46,336 nt of DNA from Methylobacterium bullatum (GTDB lineage Bacteria > Pseudomonadota > Alphaproteobacteria > Rhizobiales > Beijerinckiaceae), in the NCBI RefSeq assembly GCF_014845095.1, contig NZ_NKUG01000079.1, forward strand, positions 1 to 46,336, written 5' to 3'. A model generated the notes under the pieces. It did no database searches, had not been told where the DNA came from, and saw only the letters and a program-made list of their open reading frames with translations. Of the stretch, positions 8,562 through 23,855 are shown one piece after another. Numbering within the stretch: position 1 is the first letter of the stretch; the number at the start of each line of letters is the position of its first letter. A program made the translations under genes and the position numbers.

Positions 8562-8628
8562 CGACATCTCCCCTCGTCAATCTGGCATTGAGTATACCAG
8601 CTTGAGCGAGGGATGACAGGAGCGCGGA

Positions 8629-9429
8629 TCAGGCTCGCAGGCGCCGGAGGGCCTCGGCGTGGAGGCCGGCATTGGCCGCGGCCACGACCCGTCCGTCGAA
8701 GGCGGGCGTCAGGGGGCGACCGTCCCAGTCTGTCATCACGCCGCCCGCCCCTTCCACCACCGGCACGAGGGCCATGACGTCGTAGACCTGGAGCCCGGCT
8801 TCCACCACGAGGTCGCAATGACCGCTGGCGAGGAGGCCGTAGGCGTAGCAATCGCCGCCGAAGCGGCGCAGGCCCACCGCTCCGCTGAGCCGTGCGAAGG
8901 CCTCCGCATCCGCGCCCACGAAGATGTCCGGGGAGGTGGCGAACAGGCGGGCCTCGTGAAGGTGCCTGTCGCTCGTCCGGGCGGGCAGAGCGCCGAACCA
9001 CGCCGCGTCGCCGGTGCCGCACCAGCGTTCCCCGAGTGCCGGCATGTCGATGACGCCGACGATCGGCCGCCCCTCCGAGACCAGGGCGATGAGCGTGCCG
9101 AAGAGCGGCATGCCGGTGATGAAGCTCTTGGTCCCGTCGATCGGGTCGATCACCCAGGTGAGCGGCCGTTCGAAATCGCCGCCCTCCTCCTCTCCGAGGA
9201 TGCCGTGGTCGGGATAGACGCTGCGGATCTCGGCGCGCAGCAGGGATTCGATGGCGCGGTCGGCGGCCGTGACCGGGCTCGCATCCGCCTTGGCTTCCAC
9301 CGGCAGTTCGGTGCGGAAATAGTGCCGGGCGAGGGGGGCGGCGAAATCGGCGAGGCGATGGGCGAAGGCGATGACATCCGCCTTCGTCGCCCCGTCCCCG
9401 GACGGGATCGCCAATGCGTCCACGCCCAT
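8629..9429 (-). CDS. Inositol monophosphatase family protein, HisN-like
   Basis: 266 residues of the Mg-dependent, lithium-sensitive phosphatase fold. The metal site reads GEEEGGD, then WVIDPIDGTKSF (DPIDGT signature), and later a degenerate LQVYDVMALVPVVEGAGG in place of the usual WDxxAG motif. The DPIDGTKSFITG form and this degenerate end are typical of HisN histidinol-phosphatase-like members rather than true inositol phosphatases. ATG 9429 shares one base with the TGA of the upstream kinase gene (TGATG), so the two are coupled. In this cassette it more likely dephosphorylates a product of the neighbouring kinases than histidinol phosphate, but that is inference. Confidence 0.88.
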   Translation of the reverse strand: MGVDALAIPSGDGATKADVIAFAHRLADFAAPLARHYFRTELPVEAKADASPVTAADRAIESLLRAEIRSVYPDHGILGEEEGGDFERPLTWVIDPIDGTKSFITGMPLFGTLIALVSEGRPIVGVIDMPALGERWCGTGDAAWFGALPARTSDRHLHEARLFATSPDIFVGADAEAFARLSGAVGLRRFGGDCYAYGLLASGHCDLVVEAGLQVYDVMALVPVVEGAGGVMTDWDGRPLTPAFDGRVVAAANAGLHAEALRRLRA

Positions 9430-10367
9430 CACAGGCGCCTCAGCCAGAGCGGCCAGTCGGGATGGTGGAACAGGGTGCGGGCCCGCATGTGCTTCCAGGT
9501 TCCGTATTTGTAATAGTCGAAATCGAGGGTGGAGACGGCCTCCTGAATCATCGCCCAGGTCGCCCATTTGAGATCGCCCAGCGCCTTCAGGACCGCGATG
9601 CGCGCGTCGATCTCGGGGCTCCAGCGGCCGAAATAGGCCTCGATCATCTCGCGCTCGATGGCGTCGGGGAACGCCATCTCGTCGAACCAGAGGGCGAGCT
9701 CGTAGGCGCGCTCGTTGTTGGAGGCGTATTCGAAGTCGACGAGCAGCACCCTGTCGGCCGCGTCGATCATGAAATTGCCGGCCAGCGTATCGTTCATGCA
9801 CGGCACGAGATCGAGGCCGGAGGCCGTCAGGGCCGCCTTCGCCTCGGCCACGCAGCGCATCAGATGGGCCTGGTCGGCGGGAAGCCGGCCACCCACCTCC
9901 GCGACCTGCTCCACATGCTCCTCGATCATCGCGAAGATCGTCTTCGTCAGCCCGAGCGGCGCGGAATCGTTGAAGGCCTTGAGGGCACGCACGGCGTTGT
10001 GGCGCACGGCGGGGCGCAGGAAGTCGAGATTCGAGGAGGCGCGGTAGCCCTCGACGAAGGCGAAGATCTCGACGCCGGCCTCGGGCAGGTAGTCGATCAC
10101 CTCGACGCCGTAGCCGCAGGCATGGGCGCGGCGGCTGGCTTCGTTGGCGTGGTCGCGGGTGATGAACATTTCGGTGCCGCGACCGGGCATCTTCACGAAG
10201 ACATCCCGCGCGTCCCCGATGGCGACGTGCCAGTTGGTGTTGCTGATGCCACCCGCCACCGGCCGGTAGCGCATCGGCCGGCCCTGCCAGGAGGCGATGC
10301 CGGCGAGCACGCCCTCCAGGGCGCGCTCGCCCTCGCTGATGCCGTCGCCCAAGCCTGTCCAGCTCAT
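9429..10367 (-). CDS. Choline/ethanolamine kinase-like phosphotransferase (copy B)
   Basis: 312 residues of the APH/ChoK small-molecule kinase fold. The N-lobe has a nucleotide-loop-like GGISNTNWHV and a DVFVKMPGRGTEMF lysine strand. The catalytic loop is CMND-TLAGN, with Asp193 and Asn198; Met191 replaces the His that normally opens the motif. The metal-binding DFE is at 211-213 within LLVDFEYASNNE, typical of choline/ethanolamine kinases. The tail (YKYGTWKHMRAR, WLRRL) matches copy A at 10402-11352, so the two are paralogues. It starts 34 bases after copy A stops and couples to the phosphatase. The hydroxylated substrate is unknown. Confidence 0.87.
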   Translation of the reverse strand: MSWTGLGDGISEGERALEGVLAGIASWQGRPMRYRPVAGGISNTNWHVAIGDARDVFVKMPGRGTEMFITRDHANEASRRAHACGYGVEVIDYLPEAGVEIFAFVEGYRASSNLDFLRPAVRHNAVRALKAFNDSAPLGLTKTIFAMIEEHVEQVAEVGGRLPADQAHLMRCVAEAKAALTASGLDLVPCMNDTLAGNFMIDAADRVLLVDFEYASNNERAYELALWFDEMAFPDAIEREMIEAYFGRWSPEIDARIAVLKALGDLKWATWAMIQEAVSTLDFDYYKYGTWKHMRARTLFHHPDWPLWLRRL

Positions 10368-10401
10368 CGCCGTTCGGTGCCCCCCGTCTTGAGTGATCGA
10401 G

Positions 10402-11352
10402 TCACAGCCGGCGCAGCCAGCTTTCGAAATCGCGTGCGCCCATGGTCGTGCGCGCATGCAGGAGCCGCCAGGTTCCGTATTTGTAGAACTCGATTCCGCT
10501 GCGCGCCGAGGTGACCGCACGGGTGACGCCCCAGAGGCCGCCCATCACGTCGTCGACCGCGCCGTAGAGGCGGCAGCGGTTGTAGAGGCGCTCGTCGAAC
10601 CGGCCGGCATAATGCTCCACCGCCTCGCGCCGCTCGGGTTCGAAGGCGCAGGCCTCGTTGAGGAGGGCGCCGACGTCGAACCAGGGGTCGTTGTCGCCGG
10701 CGAGGTCGAAATCGACGAGACGGATCTCGCCCTCCCCGATCATGACGTTCGAGGCGATGCCGTCATTGTGGCAGAAGGCGAGGTCGATCCCCGACGCATG
10801 GATGGCCTCGCGCACGAGCGCCATCGTCGCCACCAGCCGGTCGGTCCCGTCGGGAAGCGGCGCGTCGGCGGCGCGGGCTTCGGCCGCGAGGCTCTCGATC
10901 CGCCCGAAGGGGCAGAATCGATGGCCGAGACGACCGTCACCATGGAGCCGCTTCTTGGCGTCCAGCACCTCGGCCAGGACCGCCCCGTCCTGAAGGTCGC
11001 CGACGCGGGCATAGCGCCAGGGCTCGGGCAGGTAGGCGAGGCCGAGCGCTCCGTCCGCCTCGTGGACCACCTCCGGGGCGACGCCGAGGCGCGCGGCCTT
11101 GCGGGCCGCCAGCCCGGCCACGGGCGTCACGTCGTCCGCCATGTCGGCGTGGCGGAGCTTGAGGAAGACCGGCTCGCCCTCGCGGAACGTGATCCGGACG
11201 CAATCCGACGCCACGGCCCGGTGAGTCGGGGACGCCACCGGCGCTGCGGCCAGCCCATAGCGAGGCTGGCGCGCGATCCAGTCCGGCCGCGTGGCGATGA
11301 CGGCCTCCACGCGGTGGTCGAAGGTGGTGCCGGCCTCGCCGTAGGCTATCAT
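10402..11352 (-). CDS. Choline/ethanolamine kinase-like phosphotransferase (copy A)
   Basis: 316 residues of the APH/ChoK fold. The N-lobe carries the PVFLKLRHAD lysine strand. The catalytic loop is the standard CHND-GIASN (His195, Asp197, Asn202), and the metal site is DFD at 214-216 in RLVDFDLAGDNDPWFD. The C-terminal YKYGTWRLLHAR and WLRRL motifs are shared with copy B. ATG 11352 overlaps the TGA of the M20 gene in an ATGA junction, giving translational coupling. It probably phosphorylates a small alcohol such as choline, ethanolamine or a related compound; the partner genes do not fix which. Confidence 0.87.
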   Translation of the reverse strand: MIAYGEAGTTFDHRVEAVIATRPDWIARQPRYGLAAAPVASPTHRAVASDCVRITFREGEPVFLKLRHADMADDVTPVAGLAARKAARLGVAPEVVHEADGALGLAYLPEPWRYARVGDLQDGAVLAEVLDAKKRLHGDGRLGHRFCPFGRIESLAAEARAADAPLPDGTDRLVATMALVREAIHASGIDLAFCHNDGIASNVMIGEGEIRLVDFDLAGDNDPWFDVGALLNEACAFEPERREAVEHYAGRFDERLYNRCRLYGAVDDVMGGLWGVTRAVTSARSGIEFYKYGTWRLLHARTTMGARDFESWLRRL

Positions 11353-12671
11353 CGCTCCCCTCCGAACGCGTCGTTCGGCCGCCTGAAGAGCAAGGCCCGT
11401 TCCGGAGATCCGCCGGCGCGGCACAGGCGCCATGCGGCGAGCAGTCCCACCGAGAGCCCGGCTTCGAGATCGGCCGGCCGCGTCAGCTCGGCCTCGTTAT
11501 GCGCGATGCCCCCGACGCTGGGGACGAAGACGATGCCGGTGGGGCATTGGCCGAGCAGGCTGATCGCGTCGTGGCCGGCCACGGTATCCATGCGCAGCGA
11601 CCGCAGGGAGGTCTCCTCGGCGCAGGCGGCGACGAGATCGCACACGGCCTCCGGCAGGCTGCGGATCGGCCGCAGGGTCCGGCCGGGGATCGCCGCGACG
11701 ACGCCTGCGCGCTCCGCCGCTTCCGTGATCGCCGCCTCCGCCATGAGGGCCGCATCGGTGAGGAGGGCATTGTCGGCCGAGCGCAGTTCCACGCTCAGTT
11801 CCACCCGCGCGGGCACCACGTTGGGGGAATTGGGCTCGACCAGGATGCGGCCGACGGAGGAATGGAAGCGGCCGGGCCAGCGCTCGGCGATCTCCCTCAC
11901 CTCGGCGATGAGATAGGCGGCGGCGAGCAGCGCATCGCGCCGGCGCGGCATCGGGGTCGGGCCGGTATGGGCCTGCTCGCCGGTGAAGACCACGTCGATC
12001 TTGGCCGCCCCCCAGTTGCGGGTGACGATGCCGATGCTCGCCTTGGCCTTCTCCAGGACGAGGCCCTGCTCCACGTGGAGTTCGAGATAGCAGGCCGGGA
12101 GCGGCGGCGGCCGGTCCGTGCCGAGGAACCCGATCCCGTCCAGGGCCTCCCGAAGGGTGATCCCGGCATCGTCGCGGCTGGACAAGGCCTCCTCGATCCG
12201 GCGCGCGCCCGCATAGGCGCCGCTTCCGAGCAGGCTCGGCCGGAAGCGCGCGCCCTCCTCGCCGGTCCAGTTCACCGCACAGAAATCCGCCCCGAAGGTC
12301 TCGCCAGCGCGCCGCGCCCGCATCAGGGCGGCGCCGATGGCGGCGGCCGCGACCACGCCGTAGGTCCCGTCGAAGCGGCCGGCCTTGGGCTGGCTGTCGA
12401 GATGGGAGCCCAGCATCACCAGGGGGGCGCCCGGACCGTCCGCGAGGGGGAAGATGGCGAACTGGTTGCCGACCCCGTCCACGAGGATGTCGGCCCCCGC
12501 CTCCCGGGTTGAATTGGCGAAGAGGCGACGGGCCTGCCCGTCCTCGGCCGAGGCGCAGAGCCGGGTGATGCCGCCGCCCGGCGTCGCCCCGCAGGCGGAG
12601 ATCTCCGCGAAGAGCGCGTGGAACGCGCGCGCCGTCGCTGCCGCGTCAGGAGCTGATGAGATCGATGTCAT
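11349..12671 (-). CDS. Zn-dependent M20 amidohydrolase (allantoate amidohydrolase / N-carbamoyl amino acid hydrolase type)
   Basis: 440 residues of the hydantoinase/carbamoylase branch of M20. Metal and catalytic motifs are in order: GSHLDSQPKAGRFDG (His, Asp), NWTGEEGARF (Glu pair), ELHVEQG (His), AGHDAISLL and the late GGIAHNEAE histidine. The EEGARF and HIEQG-type motifs separate it from the peptidase at 241-1662. Such enzymes hydrolyse allantoate, beta-ureidopropionate or N-carbamoyl amino acids, releasing ammonia and CO2 or a free amine. ATG 12671 overlaps the deoR-family stop by 26 bases. No hydantoinase or allantoinase partner is in the window, so the substrate is open. Confidence 0.9.
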   Translation of the reverse strand: MTSISSAPDAAATARAFHALFAEISACGATPGGGITRLCASAEDGQARRLFANSTREAGADILVDGVGNQFAIFPLADGPGAPLVMLGSHLDSQPKAGRFDGTYGVVAAAAIGAALMRARRAGETFGADFCAVNWTGEEGARFRPSLLGSGAYAGARRIEEALSSRDDAGITLREALDGIGFLGTDRPPPLPACYLELHVEQGLVLEKAKASIGIVTRNWGAAKIDVVFTGEQAHTGPTPMPRRRDALLAAAYLIAEVREIAERWPGRFHSSVGRILVEPNSPNVVPARVELSVELRSADNALLTDAALMAEAAITEAAERAGVVAAIPGRTLRPIRSLPEAVCDLVAACAEETSLRSLRMDTVAGHDAISLLGQCPTGIVFVPSVGGIAHNEAELTRPADLEAGLSVGLLAAWRLCRAGGSPERALLFRRPNDAFGGER

Positions 12672-13398
12672 GCTGGGTGAAATGATCCAGGAACGGCTGT
12701 GGCGGCGGCCGGTCGGTGACGAGGGTGAGCCGTTCCGAGAGGCCGAAGGTGCAGAGGTTCGCCTGACGCCCGAACTTGCGGGAATCGGCCAGAAGCACGC
12801 TCTGGCGCGCCTGGCCCCGCAGCACCTTCCGCAGGGCGGATTCGTGCTCCTCGTAATCCATCCAGCCATGGGTGAGGTCGCAGGCCGCGATACCCATGAA
12901 GGCGATGTCGAAATAGAACCGCTGCGCGTAGGCCACCGTCTCGTAGCCCACCAGGGCGTTGTCCCGCGCCCGCAGCATCCCCGGCGTCAGGTTCACCCGG
13001 GCGGGGCCGCTGCCGAGATGGAGCGCCACGTCGATGGAATTCGTCGTCACCGTGAGGTTGCGGCCGCTGAGGCGGCGGGCGAAGGCGAGCGTCGTGGTGC
13101 CGGTGTCGATGAAGATCGACATCCCGTCGCGGATCAGCCCCTCGGCATTGGCTGCCACCTTCGCCTTCTCGCGCGGGTTGGTCTTGCCCCGCTCCTGGAG
13201 CGGCCGGTCCTGGTCCAGGCGGGGTGGCACGGCGCCCCCGTGGATCCGCCGCAGGACGCCGCGCTCCTCCAGCACCTTGAGGTCGCGCCGGATGGTCTCC
13301 TCGGAGACCCGCAGATAAGCGGCCACGTCGGAGACGCCGACCCGCCCCGTCCCGTTCAGACGGGACAGGATCTCCTGGTAGCGGTGGTCGGTCAGCAT
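12646..13398 (-). CDS. DeoR/GlpR family transcriptional regulator
   Basis: 250 residues. The N-terminal winged helix (about 5-57) has the DeoR recognition helix in VSEETIRRDLKVLEERG followed by LRRIHGGAV. The C-terminal DeoRC domain carries the phosphosugar-binding loop DTGTTTLAFARRL and a VTTNSIDVA strand. DeoR regulators usually repress their operon until a phosphorylated metabolite binds. Here the operon encodes two kinases and a phosphatase, so the inducer could be the kinase product. ATG 13398 gives a normal family length. It is the first gene of the minus-strand cassette. Confidence 0.92.
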   Translation of the reverse strand: MLTDHRYQEILSRLNGTGRVGVSDVAAYLRVSEETIRRDLKVLEERGVLRRIHGGAVPPRLDQDRPLQERGKTNPREKAKVAANAEGLIRDGMSIFIDTGTTTLAFARRLSGRNLTVTTNSIDVALHLGSGPARVNLTPGMLRARDNALVGYETVAYAQRFYFDIAFMGIAACDLTHGWMDYEEHESALRKVLRGQARQSVLLADSRKFGRQANLCTFGLSERLTLVTDRPPPQPFLDHFTQHDIDLISS

Positions 13399-14007
13399 CG
13401 GCGTCGGCGTCTCCCCAATCCGCGAAAGAGTAGCGATTTTGGTGAGCCGAGGCCGCAGGAAAACACGTGTCCCACAGGGTGTTTCCCACGGAGATGGCAA
13501 TCGCGTCGCTCGTGCCGGGGGAAGCCGCCAGCGATGCCGGTTTCCGGAACCCTCCGGCGATCGGGAGCCGCGCTGGAGCCGGATGGGCGGGATCGGGCAG
13601 ATCCAACGCGGCGGCCTGTCCTGTCCGATTGATCATGCCGCCAGAATCACGCTGCCTGAGCCGAGATGACGAGAGATGCCGGCGTCGCTTTCCATGACGA
13701 CACGTGACGGCCGGACCTCAGCGGAAAGGTCCCCGGCGCAGGTCGCCTGTCAATCTGATTCTGACCGAAATGTGGGATTTATGAGTATTTGCCTGAATTT
13801 TCCGCCTTATGCCATCTGTGGGATCACACATGCCCGTTTCCGTGCCCGGTTTGTCCGTCCGGCTCCCGCAGGTCCGCTGCGTCAGGCTTCTTGAGCCTGC
13901 TTCTTCTGGTTGAATATCAATCGTTTAGCGTCGAGAACACAATCTGCCGGTGTCGTGCAAAGAATTCGGGTGAGAAATGGAACTTTTCTCGAGTGCGCTC
14001 CCCGTTG
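13399..14007. other. Divergent intergenic region between the DeoR cassette and the porin gene
   Basis: A 721-base gap extends from the deoR-family start to the porin start at 14120; this entry covers the part before the sigma-54 element. Several short open frames cross it but none has a convincing ribosome site or composition. The stretch near 13760-13970 is AT-richer and probably holds promoters and activator sites. No RNA gene or operator could be identified with confidence. Confidence 0.4.
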
Positions 14008-14022
14008 TGGCACTGGCCTTGC
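14008..14022 (+). promoter_or_regulatory. Predicted sigma-54 (RpoN) promoter of the porin gene
   Basis: TGGCACTGGCCTTGC matches the RpoN consensus TGGCAC-N5-TTGC exactly. The invariant GG (14009-14010) and GC (14021-14022) are separated by the required 10 bases. Transcription would start near 14034, leaving a leader of about 85 bases before the porin ATG at 14120. RpoN promoters need an ATP-dependent activator bound upstream, and the 13760-13990 region could hold its site. Confidence 0.65.
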
Positions 14023-14119
14023 GGAACCCTCCCAATCTCACAATTCCCCGCGCCTGGGCTCCTCCGACGAGCACGAGACCCGAAAGGCGCGGGGAACAGC
14101 AGCAGGGGGACGTTCGACG

Positions 14120-15595
14120 ATGCCGAGAGACGCGACAGAGAAACCCGCGAGCGCCGCCGTCGCGCGCTCCGCTCGCCGCACCGGGCTTCCGGTTCTCCTG
14201 GGCGGTGCGTTCCTCGCCGCGGGCATGCTGTCCGCCGAGGCTCAGACCGCCTCGCCCGTCGGCGAACTCAACGCCCAGACGCAGCCGCGCACCGACCGGG
14301 ACATCGCCTCGAAACCCGCCGATCCCGTGCGCACCGGGCCGCTTGCGCCCTGGGCCACCGACATGGCGGCGCGGGGACTGACCTTCGACGTCAACATCTA
14401 CGATTTCTACCAGGCCAATCCGAGCGCCGGCCTGCGCACGGGCGAGCAATCGAACGCCGCCTATTTCGTGCTCAGCATGACGGCCGACATGCAGAAGCTC
14501 GCCGGCATCGCCGGTGGCTCGATCAACTTCACCCAGACCTTCTTCGGCCTCGTGCGCAACCTCAACATGGCCGGCGACATCGGCGACACCACGGTGGGCT
14601 ACCAGCCGCCCTACACGCCCAACAGCACCCGCCTCTCGCTGCTGACCTATCAGCAGAAGCTCCTCGACGACCGCCTCGTGGTGGAGGTCGGCCGTACGCA
14701 TCCCGACCGATATTACGGCCTGCCGCCGTGCAACTCGATCAATTCCTGCTTCCAGGACATGTTCTACTTCAATGCCGGCTTCACCTCGCCGCTCTTCGGC
14801 GTCTGGGGCGCCAACATCGCCTATAAGCTCTCGCCGACGACTTACATCCAGGCCGGCGCTTTCAGCGTGAACCCCAACACCAACGTCCTGTCGGGCTACG
14901 ATTTCGGCTACGAGCGCCTGTCCGGCGCCGTCGTGATGACCGAGATCGGCCGCAAGACCGACTACACGATGGAGGCCTATCCCGGCCGCGTCTCGCTCAC
15001 CGGCTTCTACAACACCGCCGACCACGACGATAACTTCAAGACCATCGCCGGCACGTCGAAGGGCCTCAATCCGGGCACTCCGTCGTTGCAGAAATCCGGC
15101 ACGTCGGGCGTCGTCCTCACCGGCACGCAGACCCTGTGGCGGGCCGATGGCGGGCGTGACGCGAGCAACCCGCATCCCACCGCGATCTCGGCCTATACCG
15201 GCACCGGCTACGCCTTCGATCCGACGATCCCGATCCGCTTCAACTCCTTCGCCGGCCTGCTGCTGTCGGCGCCCGACCAGGGCCGTCCCAACGACACCTA
15301 CGGCATCAAGGCCAACTGGCAGCGGCTGAACCAGAACTATGCCGACTTCCTGTCGGATGCGAACTTCATCTCGGGCGGCACCGGCGAGCCCTATTCGCGT
15401 GACAAGTTCGTGTTCGAGGTCAACGCCCATTTCGATCTCGGCGCGGGCGTCGTCCTCGAGCCGGTGGTCCAGTACGTCGTCAACCCGAATTCCTTCTACA
15501 ACCCCTATACGGCCCGCCGCGCCAAGGACGGGTTCTACGGCGGCTTCACCCTCGTCGTTCCCCTCGGCACGCTGCTGGGCCTGGCGCCGGGCTGA
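14120..15595 (+). CDS. Carbohydrate porin, OprB-like
   Basis: 491 residues. A signal peptide with an arginine-containing n-region and an alanine/leucine core ends at AEA-Q (about residue 41). The mature part alternates aromatic beta strands and turns, as in an outer-membrane barrel: LTFDVNIYDFYQ, GSINFTQTFFGLV, LVVEVGRTHPDRYYG, FEVNAHFDLGAGVVLEPVVQYVVNPN. The VGRTHP and QYVVNPN segments and the overall layout fit the OprB carbohydrate-selective porins. Its GGGGGA ribosome site lies 9 bases before the ATG. It is probably a sugar or small-solute channel; ions or amides are also possible. It is monocistronic, with its own promoter and terminator. Confidence 0.88.
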   Translation: MPRDATEKPASAAVARSARRTGLPVLLGGAFLAAGMLSAEAQTASPVGELNAQTQPRTDRDIASKPADPVRTGPLAPWATDMAARGLTFDVNIYDFYQANPSAGLRTGEQSNAAYFVLSMTADMQKLAGIAGGSINFTQTFFGLVRNLNMAGDIGDTTVGYQPPYTPNSTRLSLLTYQQKLLDDRLVVEVGRTHPDRYYGLPPCNSINSCFQDMFYFNAGFTSPLFGVWGANIAYKLSPTTYIQAGAFSVNPNTNVLSGYDFGYERLSGAVVMTEIGRKTDYTMEAYPGRVSLTGFYNTADHDDNFKTIAGTSKGLNPGTPSLQKSGTSGVVLTGTQTLWRADGGRDASNPHPTAISAYTGTGYAFDPTIPIRFNSFAGLLLSAPDQGRPNDTYGIKANWQRLNQNYADFLSDANFISGGTGEPYSRDKFVFEVNAHFDLGAGVVLEPVVQYVVNPNSFYNPYTARRAKDGFYGGFTLVVPLGTLLGLAPG

Positions 15596-16375: not shown

Positions 16376-16510
16376 TCCGGGGGAGCCCGACCGCGGTCCG
16401 CGCCGTCGCCGAGACGGCCGGGATCGCACCGGGGATCCTGCGCAAAACAGCGTATGGCGTATCGGCCCCGCCCCCGGCATCGAGGGGGGAACATCCCCAA
16501 GGAACCCGCC

Positions 16511-17284
16511 ATGCCCGCCGTCGACGCCCTCTACCGCTATCCGATCAAGGGTCTGTCGGCCGAGGCCCTGACACGCCTGAGCGTCACCCCGCAGGACGGG
16601 CTCGCCCATGACCGGGAATACGCCCTGGCGCTGGGGACCACCCGGTTCGATCCGGAGAAGCCGGAGCCCCTGGACAAGGGCTTCTTCCTGATGCTGCGCA
16701 ACAACACGGCGCTGGCGGCCCTTTCGACGCGGCTCGACCCCGAAAGCCATCGCCTGACGATCCGGCGCGGCGGGGAGGAGGTGTTCGCCGCCGACCTGTC
16801 CACGGAGGCCGGGCGTGCCGGGACGGAGGCGTTCTTCGCCGATTACCTCGGCGAGGAGACCCGCGGGCGACCCCGCCTCGTGCGGAGTGAGAACCACAAG
16901 TTCACCGATGCCAGCGTGCTCTCACCGGTGATGATGCGCGCGATCTCGGTGGTGAACCTCGCCTCGGTGCGGGCGCTGTCCGAGGCGACGGGGCGGGAGC
17001 TCGATCCCCTGCGCTTCCGCGCCAACATCCATCTCGACGGGCTGGAGCCGTGGCAGGAGCTCGATTGGGTGGGGCGCGCGCTCGGCATCGGCCCGGTGCG
17101 CCTGCGCGGCCTCGCCCGCACGCCGCGCTGCGGCGCCGTCAACGTCAACCCGAAGACCGCCGAGCGCGACGCGAACCTGCCGAAAGCCATCATGAAGCAT
17201 TTCGGGCATGTGGACCTCGGGATCTATCTCGAGGTCGTCGAGGGCGGGACGATCGCCACGGCGGATGGTGTCACCCTCGACTGA
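16511..17284 (+). CDS. MOSC domain-containing protein (MOSC N-terminal beta barrel)
   Basis: 257 residues. The N-terminal beta-barrel domain opens with the family motif LYRYPIKGLSAE. The MOSC domain (about 110-250) includes LDPLRFRANIHLDGLEPWQE, then RTPRCGAVNVNPKTAERD, where the cysteine is the predicted molybdenum-cofactor/sulfur ligand of mARC-like and YcbX-like proteins. It is likely a molybdoenzyme reducing N-hydroxylated compounds or a sulfur carrier. The ATG at 16511 has AAGGA 7 bases upstream, so the 19 extra codons open before it are not used. Confidence 0.9.
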   Translation: MPAVDALYRYPIKGLSAEALTRLSVTPQDGLAHDREYALALGTTRFDPEKPEPLDKGFFLMLRNNTALAALSTRLDPESHRLTIRRGGEEVFAADLSTEAGRAGTEAFFADYLGEETRGRPRLVRSENHKFTDASVLSPVMMRAISVVNLASVRALSEATGRELDPLRFRANIHLDGLEPWQELDWVGRALGIGPVRLRGLARTPRCGAVNVNPKTAERDANLPKAIMKHFGHVDLGIYLEVVEGGTIATADGVTLD

Positions 17285-17481: not shown

Positions 17482-19038
17482 TCAGCTTGGCCTCACCAGG
17501 CTCGGCGCCTTGCGGTAGCCGGTGGCCGCCTCGTAGGCATAGGCGAAGCCGAGGAGGTCGGCCTCGCTCCACATCCGGCCCACGAAGATCAGGTTGAACG
17601 GCGAGCCGCTGGCATAGGCCCCGGCCGGCAGCGTGACGCCGGGCAGGCCGGCGATGTTGATCTCGCAGACCGTGGTCTCGTTGATGGCGAGGCCGCCATG
17701 CAGGGGCGGCAGTTCATCGCGCATCTGCGGGAAGACGAGCCCGTCGAGCCCGTTCTCGTCCATCACTTGGTTGAAGATGTCGAGATAAGCCTCTCTGAGG
17801 GCGAGGAAGTCCGACAGGTCGGGCGGCCGCGTCGGGTCGGCCAGGATCGCCTCGAAGACCGGATATTGGTGCAGGTAGCGCAGCACGCCCTTGGGGCCGA
17901 ACGCATCCTCCTCCGCCGTCGCCTCGGCGAAGGACGCGACGCTCCGCAGCGCGGCGCTCCCCCCGAGGCGCTGCAGGTAGAGATGCAGGTCGTAGGGCAC
18001 GGATTCCATGCCGCGGGCATCGAAATAGTTCAGGCCCTCGGTGGGCTCGGCGAGGGCCGCGAAGCCCGTGCCGGCGAAGGGATCGGCGACCAGGGTCGCG
18101 CCGCAGGCGGTAATCTCGCTCTGCGCCCGCGCGTAGAGGTCCGTCGCCTCCGCCGAGAGCGGCAGGTCGCGCCAGCCGGGTCCGAACAGGCCGAGGCGCT
18201 TGCCCTGGAGCCCGTTCCTGTCGAGCTTCGAGGTGTAGCCGCCCTTGGGCCGCTTGCCGATGCCGGCCACGGTCTTGGGGTCGGCGGCGGTGTAGCCGGC
18301 CAGCACGTCGAGGGTCAGCGCCGCGTCGCGCACGCAGCGGGCGATGGGGCCGACCACGTCGCGGGTGCTGCCGGCCAGGGGCACCACCCCGGCATTGGGG
18401 ACGAGGGCGAAGGTCGGCTTGATGCCGACCAGTCCCTGCGCCGAGGCCGGGTTCTGGATCGAGCCGCCGGTCTCCTCGGCGAGGCCGAGCACCGCGAGGC
18501 TGGCGCCCACCGCCGTGGCCGTGCCGGCGCTGCTGCCGCCGGGCAGGCAATCGGGCGCCGCCGAATTCAGGGTCGGTCCGGCCCAGCTGTCGTTGGCGTG
18601 GCTGCCGGTGGCGCTGAGGACGGGGACGTTGGTCTTGCCGAGCATGACGCAGCCGGCCGCCCGCATCCGCGCCACGACGGGCGAGTCGGTCTCGGGGATC
18701 AGGTCGACGCCGCCGGCCTTGGCGCTGAGGAAGCGCCAGCCCGCCGTGGTCGGCAGCCCGGCCATGTCCATCGGGTCCTTGATCACCACCGGCACGCCGG
18801 CCAGCGGTCCCAGCGCCTCGCCGGCGGCGCGGCGCGCGTCGATGGCGCGGGCGTCGTCCAGCGCCTGCGGGTTCATGACGATGATGGCGTTGTAATGCGG
18901 GTTGTAGGCGGCGATCCGGTCGAGGAAGGCCAGCGTCAACGCCTCCGAGGTGACGCCGCTGGCGAAAGCGTCGGCCACGTCGGCCAGGGTCATCTCGACG
19001 ATGTCGAGGTCGGGGCTTGGTGTCGGGGCGGCGGCCAT
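17482..19038 (-). CDS. Amidase (amidase signature family)
   Basis: 518 residues of the Ser-cisSer-Lys amidase family. The catalytic lysine is in VPVVIKDPMDMAG. The serine pair is in LPGGSSAGTATAVGAS and EETGGSIQNPASAQGLVGIKPT, where EETGGS replaces the common DTGGS. Such enzymes release ammonia from amides or act on acylated amines. A strong AAGGAGA ribosome site sits 7 bases before ATG 19038. It is the last gene of the minus-strand transporter cluster, 60 bases after the final ATPase gene, which suggests it hydrolyses what the transporter brings in. It has no signal peptide, so acts in the cytoplasm. Confidence 0.92.
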   Translation of the reverse strand: MAAAPTPSPDLDIVEMTLADVADAFASGVTSEALTLAFLDRIAAYNPHYNAIIVMNPQALDDARAIDARRAAGEALGPLAGVPVVIKDPMDMAGLPTTAGWRFLSAKAGGVDLIPETDSPVVARMRAAGCVMLGKTNVPVLSATGSHANDSWAGPTLNSAAPDCLPGGSSAGTATAVGASLAVLGLAEETGGSIQNPASAQGLVGIKPTFALVPNAGVVPLAGSTRDVVGPIARCVRDAALTLDVLAGYTAADPKTVAGIGKRPKGGYTSKLDRNGLQGKRLGLFGPGWRDLPLSAEATDLYARAQSEITACGATLVADPFAGTGFAALAEPTEGLNYFDARGMESVPYDLHLYLQRLGGSAALRSVASFAEATAEEDAFGPKGVLRYLHQYPVFEAILADPTRPPDLSDFLALREAYLDIFNQVMDENGLDGLVFPQMRDELPPLHGGLAINETTVCEINIAGLPGVTLPAGAYASGSPFNLIFVGRMWSEADLLGFAYAYEAATGYRKAPSLVRPS

Positions 19039-19098: not shown

Positions 19099-19881
19099 TC
19101 ACTCCATGCCGACGAATTCCTCGATCATCGCCCGGTCGCGGGCGATCTCGGGCGGGATCTCACGGGTGACGACGCCCTTCTGCAGGATCAGCACCCGCTC
19201 GGAGAGGCCGGCGATGAAGGTGAGGTTCTGCTCGACGAGCAGGATCGTCAGGCCGCGCGCCCGGCCGATCGCCTGCAGCGTCTCGATGATCTCCTCGATG
19301 ATCGAGGGCTGGATGCCCTCCGTCGGCTCGTCGAGGAGGAGGATGCGGGGATTGCCGCACAGGCAGCGCGCCAGCGCCAGCAATTGCTGCTCGCCGCCCG
19401 AGAGTGCCCCGCCCGGCCGGTCGAGATAGGCCTTCAGCCGGGGGAAGACGCTGAGGCTATCCGCGATGGTCTCGTCCTCGTCCCTGTCGGAGAGAAGACA
19501 GCCCATGCGCAGGTTCTCGCGCACGCTCAAGGTCGCGAAGATCTCCCGCCCTTGCGGCACGAAACCCATGCCGAGCCGCGCCCGCGCCGTGGGCGAGCGC
19601 CGGGCAATGTCCTCGTCCCCAAGGCGGATGCGGCCGGCGGTGACGGGGAGGTAGCCCATCAGGGTGCGCAGCAGGGTCGTCTTGCCCATGCCGTTATGGC
19701 CGAGGATGCCCACGAATTCGCCCTCCCCCACGGTCAGCGATACGCCGCCGAGGATCGGGATGCGGCCGTAGCCGGAATGCAGGCCCTCGACGGACAGGAG
19801 GGCGGGCCGTGCCGCCATGGCGTTGGCGTCCGGGCTGGAGGAGAGCGGCAGCGTTTCGATCGCGTTCATGGCGCGGCTCAT
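19099..19881 (-). CDS. urtE: UrtE-type ABC transporter ATP-binding protein
   Basis: 260 residues with one ABC ATPase domain: Walker A GHNGMGKTTLL, Q-loop region PQGREIFATLSV, signature LSGGEQQLL and Walker B RILLLDEPTEGIQPSII. The GMGKTTLL Walker A and the EGIQPSII ending are features of UrtE rather than generic LivF. It is the second ATPase of a branched-chain/urea-type importer. ATG 19881 overlaps the preceding gene's stop by 4 bases (ATGA); an ATG four codons in (19869) is also possible. About 30 N-terminal residues precede the domain and look disordered. Confidence 0.88.
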   Translation of the reverse strand: MSRAMNAIETLPLSSSPDANAMAARPALLSVEGLHSGYGRIPILGGVSLTVGEGEFVGILGHNGMGKTTLLRTLMGYLPVTAGRIRLGDEDIARRSPTARARLGMGFVPQGREIFATLSVRENLRMGCLLSDRDEDETIADSLSVFPRLKAYLDRPGGALSGGEQQLLALARCLCGNPRILLLDEPTEGIQPSIIEEIIETLQAIGRARGLTILLVEQNLTFIAGLSERVLILQKGVVTREIPPEIARDRAMIEEFVGME

Positions 19882-20645
19882 GCGGCCTGCTTGCCGAGAT
19901 AGACGTCGCGGACGCGCTGGTCGGCGAGCACCCGTTCCACGCTGTCTTCCATCAGGATGCGGCCCTGGTTGAAGACGGTGACGGTCCTGGCGATCATCCG
20001 GATGAAGGGCATGTCGTGCTCCACCACGATGAGGGCATGGGTGCGGTTGATCTCGCGGATGAGCTCGGCGGTGCGGTGGACCTCGTCATGGGTCATGCCG
20101 GCGGCGGGCTCGTCGAGGAGGATCAGCTCCGGTTCCTGGGCCAGCACGGTGGCGATCTCGACCCATTGGCGCTGGCCGTGGGCGAGCTGGCCGACATTGC
20201 GTTCGGCGATGGCCGTGAGCTGGAGCCGGGTCAGGGTCTCGTCGACGATGGACCGCGTCCGGGCGATGGACTTGCGCCGCCCGGCCGCCACGAACACGTT
20301 CTCGCGCACCGACAGGCCGTTGAAGACGTTGGGCACCTGGGTCTTGATGCCGACCCCGAGCCTCGCGATCCGGTGCGGCTCGGCCCCGGTGATGTCCGTG
20401 TCGCGGAAGCGGATGCGGCCCTCGGTGGGCGTCAACTGCCCGGTGAGCATCTTGAAGAAGGTGCTCTTGCCCGCGCCGTTGGGGCCGATGAGGCAGCGCA
20501 GCTCCACCTCGCCGAGGGTGAAGTCGACATTGCCCACCGCCGTCACCCCGCCGAAGCGCATGGTGACGCCCTTGGCCTCGACGAGCGGGCGAAGCGGCGG
20601 GCGGACCGGGGAAGCCGGCGCCGCCGCTGTCGTGGTGATGCTCAT
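19878..20645 (-). CDS. urtD: UrtD-type ABC transporter ATP-binding protein
   Basis: 255 residues with Walker A GPNGAGKSTFF, signature LAHGQRQWVEIA and Walker B LILLDEPAAGM. The HGQRQW signature in place of LSGGQ is the mark of UrtD. The C-terminal EHDMPFIRMIARTVTVFNQG is typical of LivG/UrtD ATPases. It partners with the ATPase at 19099-19881. ATG 20645 overlaps the TGA of the permease gene in an ATGA junction, which sets the start despite a longer open frame upstream. Confidence 0.9.
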   Translation of the reverse strand: MSITTTAAAPASPVRPPLRPLVEAKGVTMRFGGVTAVGNVDFTLGEVELRCLIGPNGAGKSTFFKMLTGQLTPTEGRIRFRDTDITGAEPHRIARLGVGIKTQVPNVFNGLSVRENVFVAAGRRKSIARTRSIVDETLTRLQLTAIAERNVGQLAHGQRQWVEIATVLAQEPELILLDEPAAGMTHDEVHRTAELIREINRTHALIVVEHDMPFIRMIARTVTVFNQGRILMEDSVERVLADQRVRDVYLGKQAA

Positions 20646-21730
20646 GGCCGGACCTCCCCTGCCAGCGCCTCGCGGGCGGGATCGGCGGGTTTGCCCGCCT
20701 TCGCCTCGACGATTTTGGCCTTGAAGAGCTTGGCGGGGAGTTCGGGAAGGCGCATCAGCAGGGTCCTCACCACCGGCAAAAGCCCCTGCGGGATCAGCAG
20801 GACGAACGCCACGAGGACGATGCCGAGGCCGAGATTGGAATCGACGACGTTCTGCGAGCCGGCCTCGATGATGAGCCACTGGATCAGCACCGCGCCGAGC
20901 ATCGGGCCGACGAGGGTGCCGAGGCCGCCCACCAGCACGAAGATGATCACCTGCGCCGACATCGACAGGCCGAACACGGTGGGGCTGATGAAGCCGCCCC
21001 AATTGGCGTAGAGGCAGCCCGCGAGCCCGGCGACGGCGCCCGAGATCATGAAGGCGAGGAGCTTGTACAGGCGCGGATCGTAGCCGATGAGTTGCGCCCT
21101 GGTCTCGTTCTCGCGGATCGCCACCACGACGCGGCCGAAGCGGCTGGCCAGCACCCAGCGCAACAACGCGTAGACCAGGATCAGGGCGCCCATGGCGGCG
21201 TACCAGACGCCGTCATTGTCGAGCGGGTTGCCCGCGTCGCCGAGCTTGTTCAGCGCCGGGATCGCCGGGATGCCGTTGAACCCGCCGAGTTCCGCCTCGC
21301 CGATCCGGTACTGGCTGCCGGAGGTGGTGTTCACGAGCTGGAACAGGATCACCGAGACGGTGAGCGTGATGACGCCGATATAGGCGTCCGAGATCCGGCC
21401 GTAGAACATGAAGTAGCCGAGCAGCCCCGCGAACAGGGTCGGCACCAGGATGGCGATGAGGATCGGCAGCGTGCTGTCGCCCATGTTGATGACGGAGACG
21501 GCGTAGGCGTAGCCCCCGAGCCCGAGGAAGGCGGCCTGCCCGAAGGACATCACCCCGCCATAGCCCCAGATGAAGCCCTGGCTCAGGGCGAACATGGCGA
21601 GTGCTGCAAAGCCCGTGGCCTGGACGAGGCCGAACGTGTCGAGGGCGTGCGGCGCCCCGAACAGGATGCCGAGCATGACGCCGAGGGTGACGAGGAACCC
21701 CATGGCGGAGCGGCGGGCGACGGGATTCAT
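20642..21730 (-). CDS. UrtC/LivM-type ABC transporter permease
   Basis: 362 residues with about nine to ten hydrophobic helices, including the LivM-family segments GYGGVMSFGQAAFLGLGGYAY near residue 55-75 and the cytoplasmic coupling loop around IRENETRAQLIGYDPRLYKL. The protein ends with a charged tail. It forms the membrane channel together with the permease at 21727-22593, whose stop overlaps this start by 4 bases. Codon overlaps through the whole cluster point to one mRNA. Confidence 0.9.
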   Translation of the reverse strand: MNPVARRSAMGFLVTLGVMLGILFGAPHALDTFGLVQATGFAALAMFALSQGFIWGYGGVMSFGQAAFLGLGGYAYAVSVINMGDSTLPILIAILVPTLFAGLLGYFMFYGRISDAYIGVITLTVSVILFQLVNTTSGSQYRIGEAELGGFNGIPAIPALNKLGDAGNPLDNDGVWYAAMGALILVYALLRWVLASRFGRVVVAIRENETRAQLIGYDPRLYKLLAFMISGAVAGLAGCLYANWGGFISPTVFGLSMSAQVIIFVLVGGLGTLVGPMLGAVLIQWLIIEAGSQNVVDSNLGLGIVLVAFVLLIPQGLLPVVRTLLMRLPELPAKLFKAKIVEAKAGKPADPAREALAGEVRP

Positions 21731-22593
21731 AGGCTGCGCCTCAGGTAGCGGCCGGTGATGCCCTGCGGCAGCACGCGGATCAGCAGGATCGCGGCGACGA
21801 GGAGGGCGACGTCGCCGATGACGGGCGTGGTCCTGAACGAGACCAGTTCGTTGATGACGCCGAACACCGACGAGGCGAGGCCCGTGCCCGTGACGATGGC
21901 CGGCCCGCCGCCGAGCACGGTGATGAAGGCGCGGGAAATGTAGGCCGCCCCCATGGACGGGGAGACGCCGGAGATCGGCGCGAGCACGCCGCCGGCCAGC
22001 CCCGCGAGGGCCGCGCCGAGGCCGAACGTCGCCATGTAGATGCGGTCGGGCGACACGCCCATGGCTGCGGCCATGCGCGGGTTCTGCATGGTGGCGCGCA
22101 GGATCAGCCCGAACTTCGTCATGCGCAGCAGGAGGAACATGCCCGTCAGCACGGCGAGCGCCGTGGCGACGATGACGAGGCTGTAGAGGCTGGCGCCGTA
22201 GCGGCCGATCTCGAAGCTCCCGACCGGCGTCGAGACGCCCCGCACGACGTTGCCGTAGAGCGTGGTGATGAGGCCGATCAGCCCGAGGCTGATGCCCCAG
22301 GTCGCCAGCATCGTGTCCATCATCCGCCCGTAGAGGAAGCGGATGACGGTGCGTTCGAGGATCAGCCCCACCGCCCCCACCACCAGGGGCGGCAGGACCA
22401 GCATGGCGATCCAGATGTTCACCCCGGCACCGTTCGCCATCACGGCGGTGTAGGCGCCGAGCATCATGAACTCGCCATGCGCCAGGTTGATGATGCGCAT
22501 CATGCCGTAGATCACCCCCAGACCGAGGGTGATCAGGACCAGGGTGGCGATGCCGGTGAGGACGTTGAAGGTCAGGAGCCCCGCGAGATCCAT
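21727..22593 (-). CDS. UrtB/LivH-type ABC transporter permease
   Basis: 288 residues, mostly membrane-spanning. The N-terminal helix is followed by GVIYGMMRIINLAHGEFMMLGAY, shared by LivH and UrtB permeases, and the coupling loop ILRATMQNPRMAAAMGVSPDR. The AlaAsn/Pro form of that loop resembles UrtB. ATG 22593 lies 11 bases after the substrate-binding gene stops and gives the usual family length; a longer frame runs back through that gene but is not coding. It is the second permease of the importer. Confidence 0.9.
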   Translation of the reverse strand: MDLAGLLTFNVLTGIATLVLITLGLGVIYGMMRIINLAHGEFMMLGAYTAVMANGAGVNIWIAMLVLPPLVVGAVGLILERTVIRFLYGRMMDTMLATWGISLGLIGLITTLYGNVVRGVSTPVGSFEIGRYGASLYSLVIVATALAVLTGMFLLLRMTKFGLILRATMQNPRMAAAMGVSPDRIYMATFGLGAALAGLAGGVLAPISGVSPSMGAAYISRAFITVLGGGPAIVTGTGLASSVFGVINELVSFRTTPVIGDVALLVAAILLIRVLPQGITGRYLRRSL

Positions 22594-22604
22594 GAAGAGG
22601 CGCC

Positions 22605-23855
22605 TCAGCCCTTCAGGTCGGGCGTGAACTGCTTGTTCATGCGCGGGTTCTTCACGAGGTCGCAGGCGCCGCCGGTATCGGCCGGGAACGAATCCGGGAA
22701 GGTCGCCAGCTGCTCCCATTTCCGGTCCTTGGGCCGGGCGAGATAGGTGTTGCGGATGGTGTGGTGGGTGCCCGGATCCATCGTCACCTTGCCCGTGGGC
22801 GAGTCGATGCTGATGCCGCTCTCCAGCGCCGCCACGACGGCGTCGCGCTCGATCGAGCCGGCCTTCTTCACCCCCTCCGCCCAGAACATGATGCCTTCGT
22901 AGGTGGCGGTGTCGAGCTCGCTCAGATCGGTGACGTCGGCGCCGAACTTGGCCTGCATGCCGGCGACGAAGGCCTTGCTCGCGGGCGTGTCGAGGTCGTT
23001 GTACCAGCCGTAGCAGGTGAGGATGCCGTTGGTGGTGGAGGTGTCCATGGTGGTCAACTCGTCGCCGAGGCCGAACACGCTGGCGCCCATGGGGATCTTG
23101 CCCTTCATGCCGGCGGCGTCCCACTGGCGGTAGAAGCCCGAATGGTTGGCGCCGACGAGGGCGGAGAGGACGATCTCCGGCTGGGCCTGCTGGATGCGGC
23201 TGATGGCGGAGGAGAAGTTCGTGACGTCGAGGGGGAAGAAGTCGGTGCCGGCCACGGAGCCGCCGCCATCCTTCATGAACTTCGTCATCCAGCTCGCGGT
23301 GATGTGGCCGTAATTGTAGTCCGCGGCGACGATGTAGGCCTTCTTGCCCCAGTTCTTGAGGGCGTAATCGACGATGTGGTTGACGGTCTGGGCCGGGGTC
23401 GAGCCGGTGCAGAAGACGTTGCGGTCGCAGACGCCGCCCTCGTACTGGGTGTTGTAGAAATAGAGGGTCTTGGAGCGGCCGAAGATCGGCCGGATCGCCT
23501 CGCGCGAGGCCGAGGTGATGCCGCCCTGGATGACGTCGACCTTGTCCTTCAGGGCGAGGGTCTGGGCGTATTGCGTATAGAGTTGCATGTTGGACTGGGT
23601 GTCGTAGGCGATCAGCTTGATCGGCCGTCCGAGCAGGCCGCCGGCCTTGTTGAGCAGTTCCACCGTGTATTCGGTGGTCTCGATCATCCGCTTGCCTTCG
23701 AGCCCGAGCGCCCCGGTCCCGTCGAGGAGGCTGCCGAGCTTGATCGGCTCCGCCGCGAGGCCGTTGCGCGCGAAGAACGGTATCGCCACCGCGCCGCCCG
23801 CCCCTGCCAAACCGAGCTTGAGCGCATGGCGACGGTTCATCGTGCCCTTGGTCAT
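22605..23855 (-). CDS. UrtA/FmdD-like substrate-binding protein with Tat-type leader
   Basis: 416 residues. The leader NRRHALKLGLAGAGGAVAIPF has a twin-arginine motif, suggesting export in a folded state. The mature protein has the type I periplasmic-binding fold: IKLGSLLDGTGALGLEGKRM, then TSASREAIRPIFGRSKTLYF and a QYEGGVCDRNVFCTG segment, which recall urea/short-chain amide receptors UrtA and FmdD rather than amino acid LivK. ATG 23855 is favoured over the ATG at 23840 because GGAG lies about 9 bases upstream. It is the first gene of the cluster. The amidase at the end supports an amide as ligand. Confidence 0.9.
   Translation of the reverse strand: MTKGTMNRRHALKLGLAGAGGAVAIPFFARNGLAAEPIKLGSLLDGTGALGLEGKRMIETTEYTVELLNKAGGLLGRPIKLIAYDTQSNMQLYTQYAQTLALKDKVDVIQGGITSASREAIRPIFGRSKTLYFYNTQYEGGVCDRNVFCTGSTPAQTVNHIVDYALKNWGKKAYIVAADYNYGHITASWMTKFMKDGGGSVAGTDFFPLDVTNFSSAISRIQQAQPEIVLSALVGANHSGFYRQWDAAGMKGKIPMGASVFGLGDELTTMDTSTTNGILTCYGWYNDLDTPASKAFVAGMQAKFGADVTDLSELDTATYEGIMFWAEGVKKAGSIERDAVVAALESGISIDSPTGKVTMDPGTHHTIRNTYLARPKDRKWEQLATFPDSFPADTGGACDLVKNPRMNKQFTPDLKG

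What the first reader, a model, noticed from the sequence alone, without database searches (positions are those of the whole stretch)
8629..13398. Uncharacterised DeoR / M20 amidohydrolase / kinase / kinase / phosphatase cassette
Five genes on one strand with overlaps or short gaps: a phosphometabolite-type DeoR regulator, a carbamoylase-type M20 hydrolase, two paralogous choline-kinase-like enzymes and a HisN-like phosphatase. Seen: motifs, order and ATGA/TGATG junctions. Known: DeoR proteins usually sense phosphosugars; carbamoylases release amines. Inferred: a pathway in which an amine or amino alcohol is freed, phosphorylated and dephosphorylated, with the phosphorylated compound as inducer. 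I do not recognise a described pathway with this set.
Basis: partly seen in the sequence, partly recalled or inferred. Interest (0 to 1): 0.72.

Follow-up and report, generated by a model that had tools for sequence, protein, structure and literature searches.

The report
Kinase-assisted ethanolamine-amide breakdown operon
A gene set shared by many plant-associated bacteria appears to import a small amide, tag it with phosphate, cut it and strip the phosphate off again to release ethanolamine as food; my limited literature searches found no description of it.

Summary
The five genes are real, intact and exactly where reported. They form a conserved cassette: of 93 loci read by tblastn, kinases K1-K2 are in 93, M20 in 91, DeoR in 82, across three proteobacterial classes and one Arthrobacter plasmid.

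The system is larger. In four Methylobacterium relatives an amidase and a urea/amide-type ABC transporter (window 17482-23984) run straight into DeoR-M20-K1-K2.

The decisive clue is elsewhere: in a Shinella plasmid, amidase-DeoR-M20-K1-K2-HisN continues into eutB-eutC, ethanolamine ammonia-lyase. Some relatives with another transporter do likewise. The window phosphatase's best plasmid match adjoins eutBC, and the genome has a better-scoring HisN elsewhere.

Best reading: an ethanolamide- or ureide-like compound is imported, phosphorylated, hydrolysed by M20 and dephosphorylated to ethanolamine; DeoR probably senses a phosphorylated intermediate. Ethanolamine as product is fairly supported; kinase-before-hydrolase is inferred; the acyl group and the need for two kinases are unknown. 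Against: EutB lies within the stretch read in only 3 of 93 loci, and 16 of 50 cassette genomes lack it. Seven searches for the gene set and one for a candidate substrate showed no description.

The parts
12646..13398 (-). DeoR/GlpR-family regulator (P0001)
   Evidence: Pfam HTH_DeoR 60.7 bits and DeoRC 134.5 bits; keeps DTGTTT and TNS stretches (their role in binding phosphate is recalled); DeoR gene in 82 of 93 loci
11349..12671 (-). M20 amidohydrolase of the hydantoinase/carbamoylase branch (P0002)
   Evidence: NCBIfam NF006772 481.4 bits (cut-off 424), TIGR01879 279.9 (cut-off 204); N284 and R297 kept in 91 of 91 M20s, Q202 in 75 of 91
10402..11352 (-). K1, divergent choline/ethanolamine-kinase-like protein (P0003)
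   Evidence: Pfam APH 39.5 and Choline_kinase 36.6 bits; AF2 model pLDDT 95.8, best PDB match 3dxq, E 1.6e-16; of 91 K1s, catalytic K in 89, D in 89, N in 91, D in 90; first glycine of the GGxxN loop in 0
9429..10367 (-). K2, choline/ethanolamine-kinase-like protein (P0006)
   Evidence: Pfam Choline_kinase 68.5 bits; a profile of 8 K2s matches 3dxq at 2.6e-38 and LicA at 6.2e-26; GGxxN loop, K59, D193, N198, D211, W268, W271 identical in 93 of 93; AF2 pLDDT 94.0
8629..9429 (-). HisN-like inositol-monophosphatase-family phosphatase (P0007)
   Evidence: TIGR02067 274.6 bits, just under its cut-off 275.15; another HisN in the genome at C268 has 308 bits; best of 148 plasmid records is the phosphatase directly upstream of eutBC in Aureimonas AU20, 61%
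17482..19038 (-). Amidase-signature-family amidase, part of the same system
   Evidence: Pfam Amidase 243.7 bits; same family in 14 of 93 loci, in 13 of them with DeoR, and in the Shinella eutBC operon, 64% identity
22605..23984 (-). Periplasmic binding protein of urea/amide type
   Evidence: Pfam Peripla_BP_6 and Peripla_BP_5; PDB matches 8tg1, urea-binding 7s6e/7s6f and AmiC 1pea; family in 15 of 93 loci, in 4 of them on the other strand
21727..23124 (-). ABC permease (ORF extended at its N-terminus; domain starts near residue 185)
   Evidence: Pfam BPD_transp_2
20642..21730 (-). ABC permease
   Evidence: Pfam BPD_transp_2
19878..21002 (-). ABC ATPase (ORF extended at its N-terminus)
   Evidence: Pfam ABC_tran from residue 157
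19099..19881 (-). ABC ATPase
   Evidence: Pfam ABC_tran
13910..15595 (+). OprB-family porin, divergent from DeoR; possible but unproven part
   Evidence: Pfam OprB 143.7 bits; cf. the porin of the Methylophilus amide/urea uptake cluster. Its ORF cluster is in only 5 of 93 loci, so weak
16454..17284 (+). MOSC-domain protein; possible but unproven part
   Evidence: Pfam MOSC_N + MOSC; in 6 of 93 loci, including Stutzerimonas L110 beside the amidase

Best explanation
A catabolic system that releases ethanolamine from a small N-(2-hydroxyethyl) amide or ureide. Proposed steps: (1) the urea/amide-type ABC transporter imports the compound (inferred from family); (2) the amidase trims it where a second amide is present (inferred; a group of relatives without amidase carries an altered M20 site); (3) the kinase pair, K2 and probably K1 as partner or second kinase, phosphorylates the hydroxyl (inferred from kinase family and pocket residues); (4) the M20 enzyme hydrolyses the phosphorylated amide, its N284/R297 holding the phosphate as M20 carbamoylases hold a carboxylate, to give O-phosphoethanolamine (inferred); (5) the HisN-like phosphatase gives ethanolamine (inferred from adjacency to eutBC in relatives); (6) ethanolamine ammonia-lyase, whose EutB is encoded elsewhere in this genome (C291), makes acetaldehyde and ammonia. 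DeoR probably senses a phosphorylated intermediate (inferred).
For: Product: contiguous amidase-DeoR-M20-K1-K2-HisN-EutB-EutC in Shinella sumterensis L141, the window's own order. DeoR-M20-K1-K2-HisN-EutB in pAspH13-3a L049, Neorhizobium L129 and genome G236. EutB exactly 800 bp from K2 in 25 plasmid records, 24 of them with EutB 97.6-100% identical to the query, so few independent events. Phosphatase-EutB-EutC without the rest in Aureimonas, whose phosphatase is the window's best plasmid match. Arthrobacter U41 has K1-K2-SSS-M20 beside SDR, ALDH, GS-like and glutamine-amidotransferase-type genes, the gene types of the published GlnA4 ethanolamine cluster (passages, PMC6529630). Kinase: K2 keeps the WxxWxxxQ...DFDF stretch of Plasmodium ethanolamine kinase. 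Phosphatase: two unrelated types, IMPase and HAD, each score best against histidinol (amino-alcohol) phosphatase models, both under cut-off. M20: N284 and R297 in 91 of 91.
Against: EutB is inside the stretch read in only 3 of 93 loci, none of them among the 14 with the window's amidase family, and in 2 of the 15 loci with the altered M20. 16 of 50 cassette genomes have no EutB. In the order sample EutB is in 13 of 28 K1-positive against 67 of 269 K1-negative genomes (p 0.023, not corrected for kinship). Two close EutB relatives on plasmids have no cassette within 9 kb: Sinorhizobium BG8 (only a partial phosphatase match) and Rhizobium lusitanum (nothing). Only 41 of 93 loci show a phosphatase. 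The Arthrobacter GS-like and hydrolase proteins are under every NCBIfam cut-off listed, and a polyamine route is not excluded. Nothing fixes the order of kinase and hydrolase or the acyl group. K2's tryptophan cage suggests a cationic substrate, which fits free ethanolamine better than an amide. Two kinases are unexplained. Window K1 has G for one pocket tryptophan.
Confidence: 0.5

Rival explanations
1. Same product, other order: amidase and M20 free ethanolamine first; the kinases then make phosphoethanolamine as inducer for DeoR or as a trap, and the phosphatase returns it.
For: K2's pocket motif matches kinases of the free amino alcohol; sister kinases stand in operons with FAD oxidoreductases, and in two of three cases with choline-type ABC transporters, a setting of free amino alcohols.
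Against: A phosphorylate/dephosphorylate cycle would spend ATP only on signalling or trapping, and does not explain two kinases. In L141, L049 and Aureimonas the phosphatase gene is the one directly before eutBC, as if a phosphorylated compound were the precursor of ethanolamine.
Confidence: 0.25
2. The amino alcohol is not ethanolamine but a relative (for example alaninol, histidinol or homoserine type), and eutBC proximity is a local addition.
For: 16 of 50 cassette genomes lack EutB; the phosphatases score nearest to histidinol-phosphatases.
Against: EutBC adjoins two distinct cassette types (L141; L049/L129/L133), and the Arthrobacter version sits with a second set resembling an ethanolamine route.
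Confidence: 0.15
3. A detoxification or antibiotic-modification cassette using aminoglycoside-phosphotransferase-like kinases.
For: K1 and K2 match Pfam APH; NCBIfam GntI guanitoxin kinase is their best named hit, far under its cut-off (67.8 and 103 against 357).
Against: Uptake transporter, hydrolases and eutBC point to nutrition; the top PDB folds are choline/ethanolamine kinases, not resistance kinases.
Confidence: 0.05
4. The phosphatase is only the histidine-biosynthesis HisN and the cassette is a mixed operon.
For: 274.6 bits to TIGR02067, just under the cut-off 275.15.
Against: The genome has another HisN with 308 bits at C268; the best plasmid match of the cassette phosphatase lies beside eutBC.
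Confidence: 0.05

Closest known systems
Ethanolamine utilisation through EutBC (ethanolamine ammonia-lyase)
   Same: EutB follows the cassette in Shinella L141, pAspH13-3a L049, Neorhizobium L129 and G236; the window genome has EutB at C291
   Different: Here ethanolamine is proposed to be released inside the cell from an amide through phosphorylated intermediates; EutB is not near the cassette in the window
GlnA4 glutamylation route for ethanolamine (Streptomyces coelicolor, PMC6529630; passages read)
   Same: Arthrobacter U41 carries GS-like, SDR, ALDH and glutamine-amidotransferase-type genes beside K1-K2-SSS-M20
   Different: The passages read do not mention a kinase pair, M20 or phosphatase; GlnA4 itself was not compared by sequence
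Choline/ethanolamine kinases (LicA 4r77/4r7b, Plasmodium 2qg7, Mesorhizobium 3dxq)
   Same: Fold, catalytic residues and C-terminal tryptophan motif in K2
   Different: In tandem with divergent K1 in 93 of 93 loci; K2 has Met or Phe for the catalytic-loop His in 91 of 93
M20 carbamoylases, beta-ureidopropionase, allantoate amidohydrolase
   Same: Family and conserved residues
   Different: Below AllC and the other equivalog cut-offs listed; Q202 replaced in 15 loci, none with an amidase
fmdCABDEF short-chain amide and urea uptake of Methylophilus (review PMC10781810; passages found by search terms)
   Same: Porin, high-affinity amide/urea transporter and an amide hydrolase together
   Different: Coupled here to kinases and a DeoR protein; most relatives use Dpp-type ABC or SSS transporters instead
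DeoR - choline-type ABC - choline-kinase-like - FAD oxidoreductase operons (L138-L140)
   Same: Related kinases; DeoR-type genes in or beside L138 and L139
   Different: No M20, amidase or HisN among the annotated genes of the stretches read

Membership tests
Choline/ethanolamine kinase family | Catalytic Lys, Asp, Asn, Asp of the kinase fold | tested here: met
   K2: K59, D193, N198, D211 in 93 of 93; K1: 89, 89, 91, 90 of 91
Choline/ethanolamine kinase family | Pair of substrate-pocket tryptophans (W420/W423 of human ChoK-alpha, recalled) | tested here: met
   K2 W268 and W271 in 93 of 93; K1 83 and 82 of 91, but window K1 has G for the first
Choline/ethanolamine kinase family | Phosphorylates choline or ethanolamine | not testable with these tools
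   needs an assay
M20 hydantoinase/carbamoylase family | TIGR01879 cut-off 204 bits | tested here: met
   279.9 bits
Allantoate deiminase AllC | TIGR03176 cut-off 597.75 bits | tested here: not met
   185.6 bits
Histidinol-phosphatase HisN | TIGR02067 cut-off 275.15 bits | tested here: not met
   274.6 bits; another gene in the genome scores 308
DeoR/GlpR regulators | DeoR HTH plus DeoRC sensor domain | tested here: met
   60.7 and 134.5 bits, both over cut-off
EutBC ethanolamine utilisation | EutB and EutC in the same cluster | tested here: not met
   EutB of the window genome is on contig C291, not here; met in relatives L049 and L141 by annotation and L129 by ORF clusters; EutC not checked in L133
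Short-chain amide/urea uptake (Fmd/Urt type) | Urea/amide-type binding protein with two permeases and two ATPases | tested here: met
   Pfam, PDB matches 7s6e, 7s6f, 1pea
Short-chain amide/urea uptake (Fmd/Urt type) | Transport of amides or urea | not testable with these tools
   needs an assay

The most novel reading that the evidence does not exclude
A catabolic strategy I found no description of: an amino-alcohol amide is phosphorylated so that its phosphate stands in for the carboxylate that M20 carbamoylases grip. N-carbamoyl-ethanolamine phosphate would mimic N-carbamoyl-beta-alanine. Two kinases, an M20 hydrolase and an amino-alcohol phosphatase together form a phospho-relay that turns ethanolamides or ureides into ethanolamine, spread on chromosomes and on Ri and other Agrobacterium/Rhizobium plasmids.
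Probability: 0.4. Interest if true: 0.75.

Novelty: new variant of a known kind. Interest (0 to 1): 0.6.

Why it matters
If right, leaf and root bacteria (Methylobacterium, Shinella, rhizobia, Pseudomonas, Pantoea) share a way to obtain nitrogen and two carbons from an amide whose identity is unknown. Finding that amide could name a plant or fungal compound that feeds bacteria of several classes and whose breakdown genes are carried on Ri and pAt plasmids. It also gives a specific test of a biochemical idea: phosphorylation used as a handle for amide hydrolysis.

Tried and rejected
Shared operator between the transporter block and DeoR in the window: one shared 10-mer in each orientation and nothing longer, no evidence. 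Loose EutB link in Methylorubrum populi (about 14 kb from K2): of six frames between them that were scanned, three have MFS or hydrolase domains and three no Pfam match, so it was not used. Urease, DMFase and formamidase neighbours (4, 4 and 3 of 93 loci; a formamidase-like ORF cluster in 6 loci): suggestive of amide-nitrogen islands, not used as proof. Guanitoxin kinase GntI: best named NCBIfam hit for the kinases but far below cut-off. Mesorhizobium L104 downstream genes (aldehyde dehydrogenase, Fe-alcohol dehydrogenase, GntR) look like a separate operon. Sagittula HisN beside DeoR and an ABC transporter without kinases: noted, not interpreted. Literature: ten searches. Seven were aimed at the gene set and listed 1, 1, 1, 0, 0, 0 and 4 papers, of which I saw only titles and abstract starts, none about this set; one was aimed at a candidate substrate (85, none listed); two were on GlnA4 and Fmd. 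Two papers were seen by passages only.
Full report
What is there. The window lies in a Methylobacterium-like genome: the closest K2 among named genomes is Methylobacterium sp. W2, 97%, and same-genus genome G117 has K1 at 92%. The five reported genes are intact, on one strand and tightly packed: DeoR, M20, K1, K2 and a HisN-like phosphatase. The histone-deacetylase-like gene just downstream (7635-8567) is in only 5 of 93 loci by ORF clustering and is not counted as part of the cassette.

It is a conserved unit. I gathered 80 loci with one scan of named genomes (best 80 of 184 confirmed relatives), 12 annotated plasmid stretches that I chose from the hits, and the window. A tblastn survey of these 93 loci finds K1 then K2 in 93, M20 in 91, DeoR in 82, an amidase in 65 (52 of one family, 14 of the window's, L060 both), a HisN-type phosphatase in 33 and a HAD-type one in 8. 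Three transporter types alternate: Dpp-type binding protein (36), SSS symporter (33) and urea/amide-type binding protein (15, in 4 of them on the other strand). Some loci end at contig ends, so absences are upper bounds. Hosts include Methylobacterium, Shinella, Rhizobium, Mesorhizobium, Pseudomonas, Pantoea, Robbsia and Arthrobacter. In a tree of 91 K1s, 93 K2s and 5 sister kinases the K1s form one clade (support 1.0); the K2s did not come out as a clade.

The cassette is larger than reported. The window's amidase (17482-19038) and ABC transporter (19099-23984) recur in the same order directly before DeoR in L055, L059, L060 and L069. In the window, L051 and L053 a block with a porin and a MOSC protein sits between. 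The binding protein resembles urea-binding proteins and AmiC. A review describes the Methylophilus fmd cluster as formamidase, porin and high-affinity amide/urea transporter (PMC10781810, one passage), the nearest description I saw of this import half.

What it makes. In Shinella sumterensis plasmid L141 the order is two permeases of branched-chain-amino-acid type, one annotated ATPase and a second ATPase-like stretch, amidase, DeoR, Zn-hydrolase, kinase, kinase, hisN, eutB, eutC, all on one strand; no binding-protein gene was seen in the stretch. The window's proteins match at 64% (amidase), 61% (DeoR), 55% (M20), 33% over part of K1, 51% (K2) and 58% (phosphatase). A second type, with a Dpp transporter and no amidase, also runs into eutB in pAspH13-3a, Neorhizobium galegae L129 and genome G236. 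Of the 60 listed of 124 EutB plasmid records and the 60 listed of 77 K2 records, the 29 accessions in both lists were compared: 25 have EutB exactly 800 bp from K2, and 4 Agrobacterium radiobacter or Rhizobium rhizogenes plasmids 11.1 kb away. In 24 of the 25 EutB is 97.6-100% identical to the query, so they count as few events. In 50 of the 80 named genomes, EutB lies within 15 kb of K2 in 5: Neorhizobium (adjacent), three R. rhizogenes (11 kb) and Methylorubrum populi (14 kb). Aureimonas AU20 has a phosphatase-EutB-EutC trio without the rest, and its phosphatase is the best plasmid match of the window's at 61%. The window genome has a different HisN scoring 308 bits against 274.5 for this one. 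In Arthrobacter U41 the cassette sits beside SDR, ALDH, glutamine-synthetase-like and glutamine-amidotransferase-type genes, the gene types of the glnA4 ethanolamine cluster of Streptomyces (PMC6529630, passages). Two possible sinks for the same compound point to ethanolamine as product.

Results against. EutB is missing from 16 of 50 cassette genomes, including the Shinella, Mesorhizobium and Pantoea genomes among them. Across 297 genomes of the order, EutB occurs in 13 of 28 genomes with a K1-like match (E up to 1e-20) and 67 of 269 without, p 0.023 without correction for kinship. Only 3 of 93 loci show EutB within the stretch read: L039 (opposite strand), L049 and L129. None of the 14 loci with the window's amidase family does; L141 was found later through EutB. 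Of the next-closest EutB relatives looked at, Sinorhizobium BG8 has only a partial phosphatase match and Rhizobium lusitanum no cassette gene within 9 kb. The phosphatase is seen in 41 of 93. The Arthrobacter GS-like and hydrolase proteins are under all NCBIfam cut-offs listed, so a polyamine route is not excluded.

The enzymes. K2 keeps the listed catalytic residues and the two pocket tryptophans in 93 of 93 and aligns with Plasmodium ethanolamine kinase through WxxWxxxQ...DFDF. K1 keeps the catalytic residues in 89 to 91 of 91 but has the first loop glycine in none. Both models are confident (pLDDT 95.8 and 94.0), with 3dxq, LicA and Plasmodium ethanolamine kinase at the top. M20: N284 and R297 occur in 91 of 91; their spacing of 13 equals that of the carboxylate-binding Asn and Arg that I recall from yeast beta-alanine synthase. 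Q202 is Q in 75, G in 14, C in 1 and unreadable in one. The 15 with G or C have no amidase and a Dpp transporter in the stretch read; the 65 with an amidase all have Q; 10 have Q and no amidase. So there appear to be two cassette types with different M20 sites.

Mechanism. Where eutBC is joined to the cassette the phosphatase gene is the one directly before it, so a phosphorylated compound most likely precedes ethanolamine. M20 enzymes of this branch grip an anion (recalled), and a plain ethanolamide offers one only after phosphorylation. I therefore favour import, optional trimming by the amidase, phosphorylation, M20 hydrolysis to O-phosphoethanolamine, dephosphorylation, EutBC. Shown: gene order, families, conserved residues. 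Inferred: every reaction, the order of kinase and hydrolase, the DeoR ligand. Unknown: the acyl group and the need for two kinases.

Known or new. The parts belong to known families. Seven searches aimed at the gene set and one at a candidate substrate listed no paper whose title or abstract start concerns it; those listed were not opened. The library lacks most subscription journals, so a description may exist. I class it as a new variant of ethanolamine utilisation.

Noticed in passing
L132 (G000:C146) 7576-8262: The same genome carries a truncated K2 of the other cassette type (residues 83-311, 93% identical to that of same-genus genome G117, which has a full second cassette, L134). The rest of that cassette was not found in the 12.4 kb of this contig that was read.
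   Followed up: partly
L138, L139, L140: Sister kinases stand in operons with large FAD-dependent oxidoreductases, betaine/choline-type ABC transporters (L138, L140) and DeoR-type genes (L138, L139), perhaps another amino-alcohol pathway.
   Followed up: partly
L066, L070, L110, L124; L046, L057, L058, L066; L045, L064, L065: Cassette loci lie near N,N-dimethylformamidase-like (first group, 4 of 93), urease (second, 4) or formamidase (third, 3) genes, suggesting amide-nitrogen islands.
   Followed up: partly
window 5102-7447 and 4470-5981, minus strand: By eye, a phytochrome-like sensor histidine kinase and a haem-oxygenase-like reading frame after it; no family search was run on either.
   Followed up: no
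L151 (Sagittula sp. MA-2 plasmid p3): A phosphatase 60% identical to the window's stands beside a DeoR gene and an ABC transporter without kinases, as if an already phosphorylated compound were imported.
   Followed up: no
L080, K1 region: K1 of Stutzerimonas kirkiae could not be read through without a stop in my extension, possibly a frameshift.
   Followed up: no
L048 (Thioclava), L115, L135: Kinase pairs with an amidase but no M20 found in the stretch read, suggesting that the two hydrolases can replace each other.
   Followed up: no
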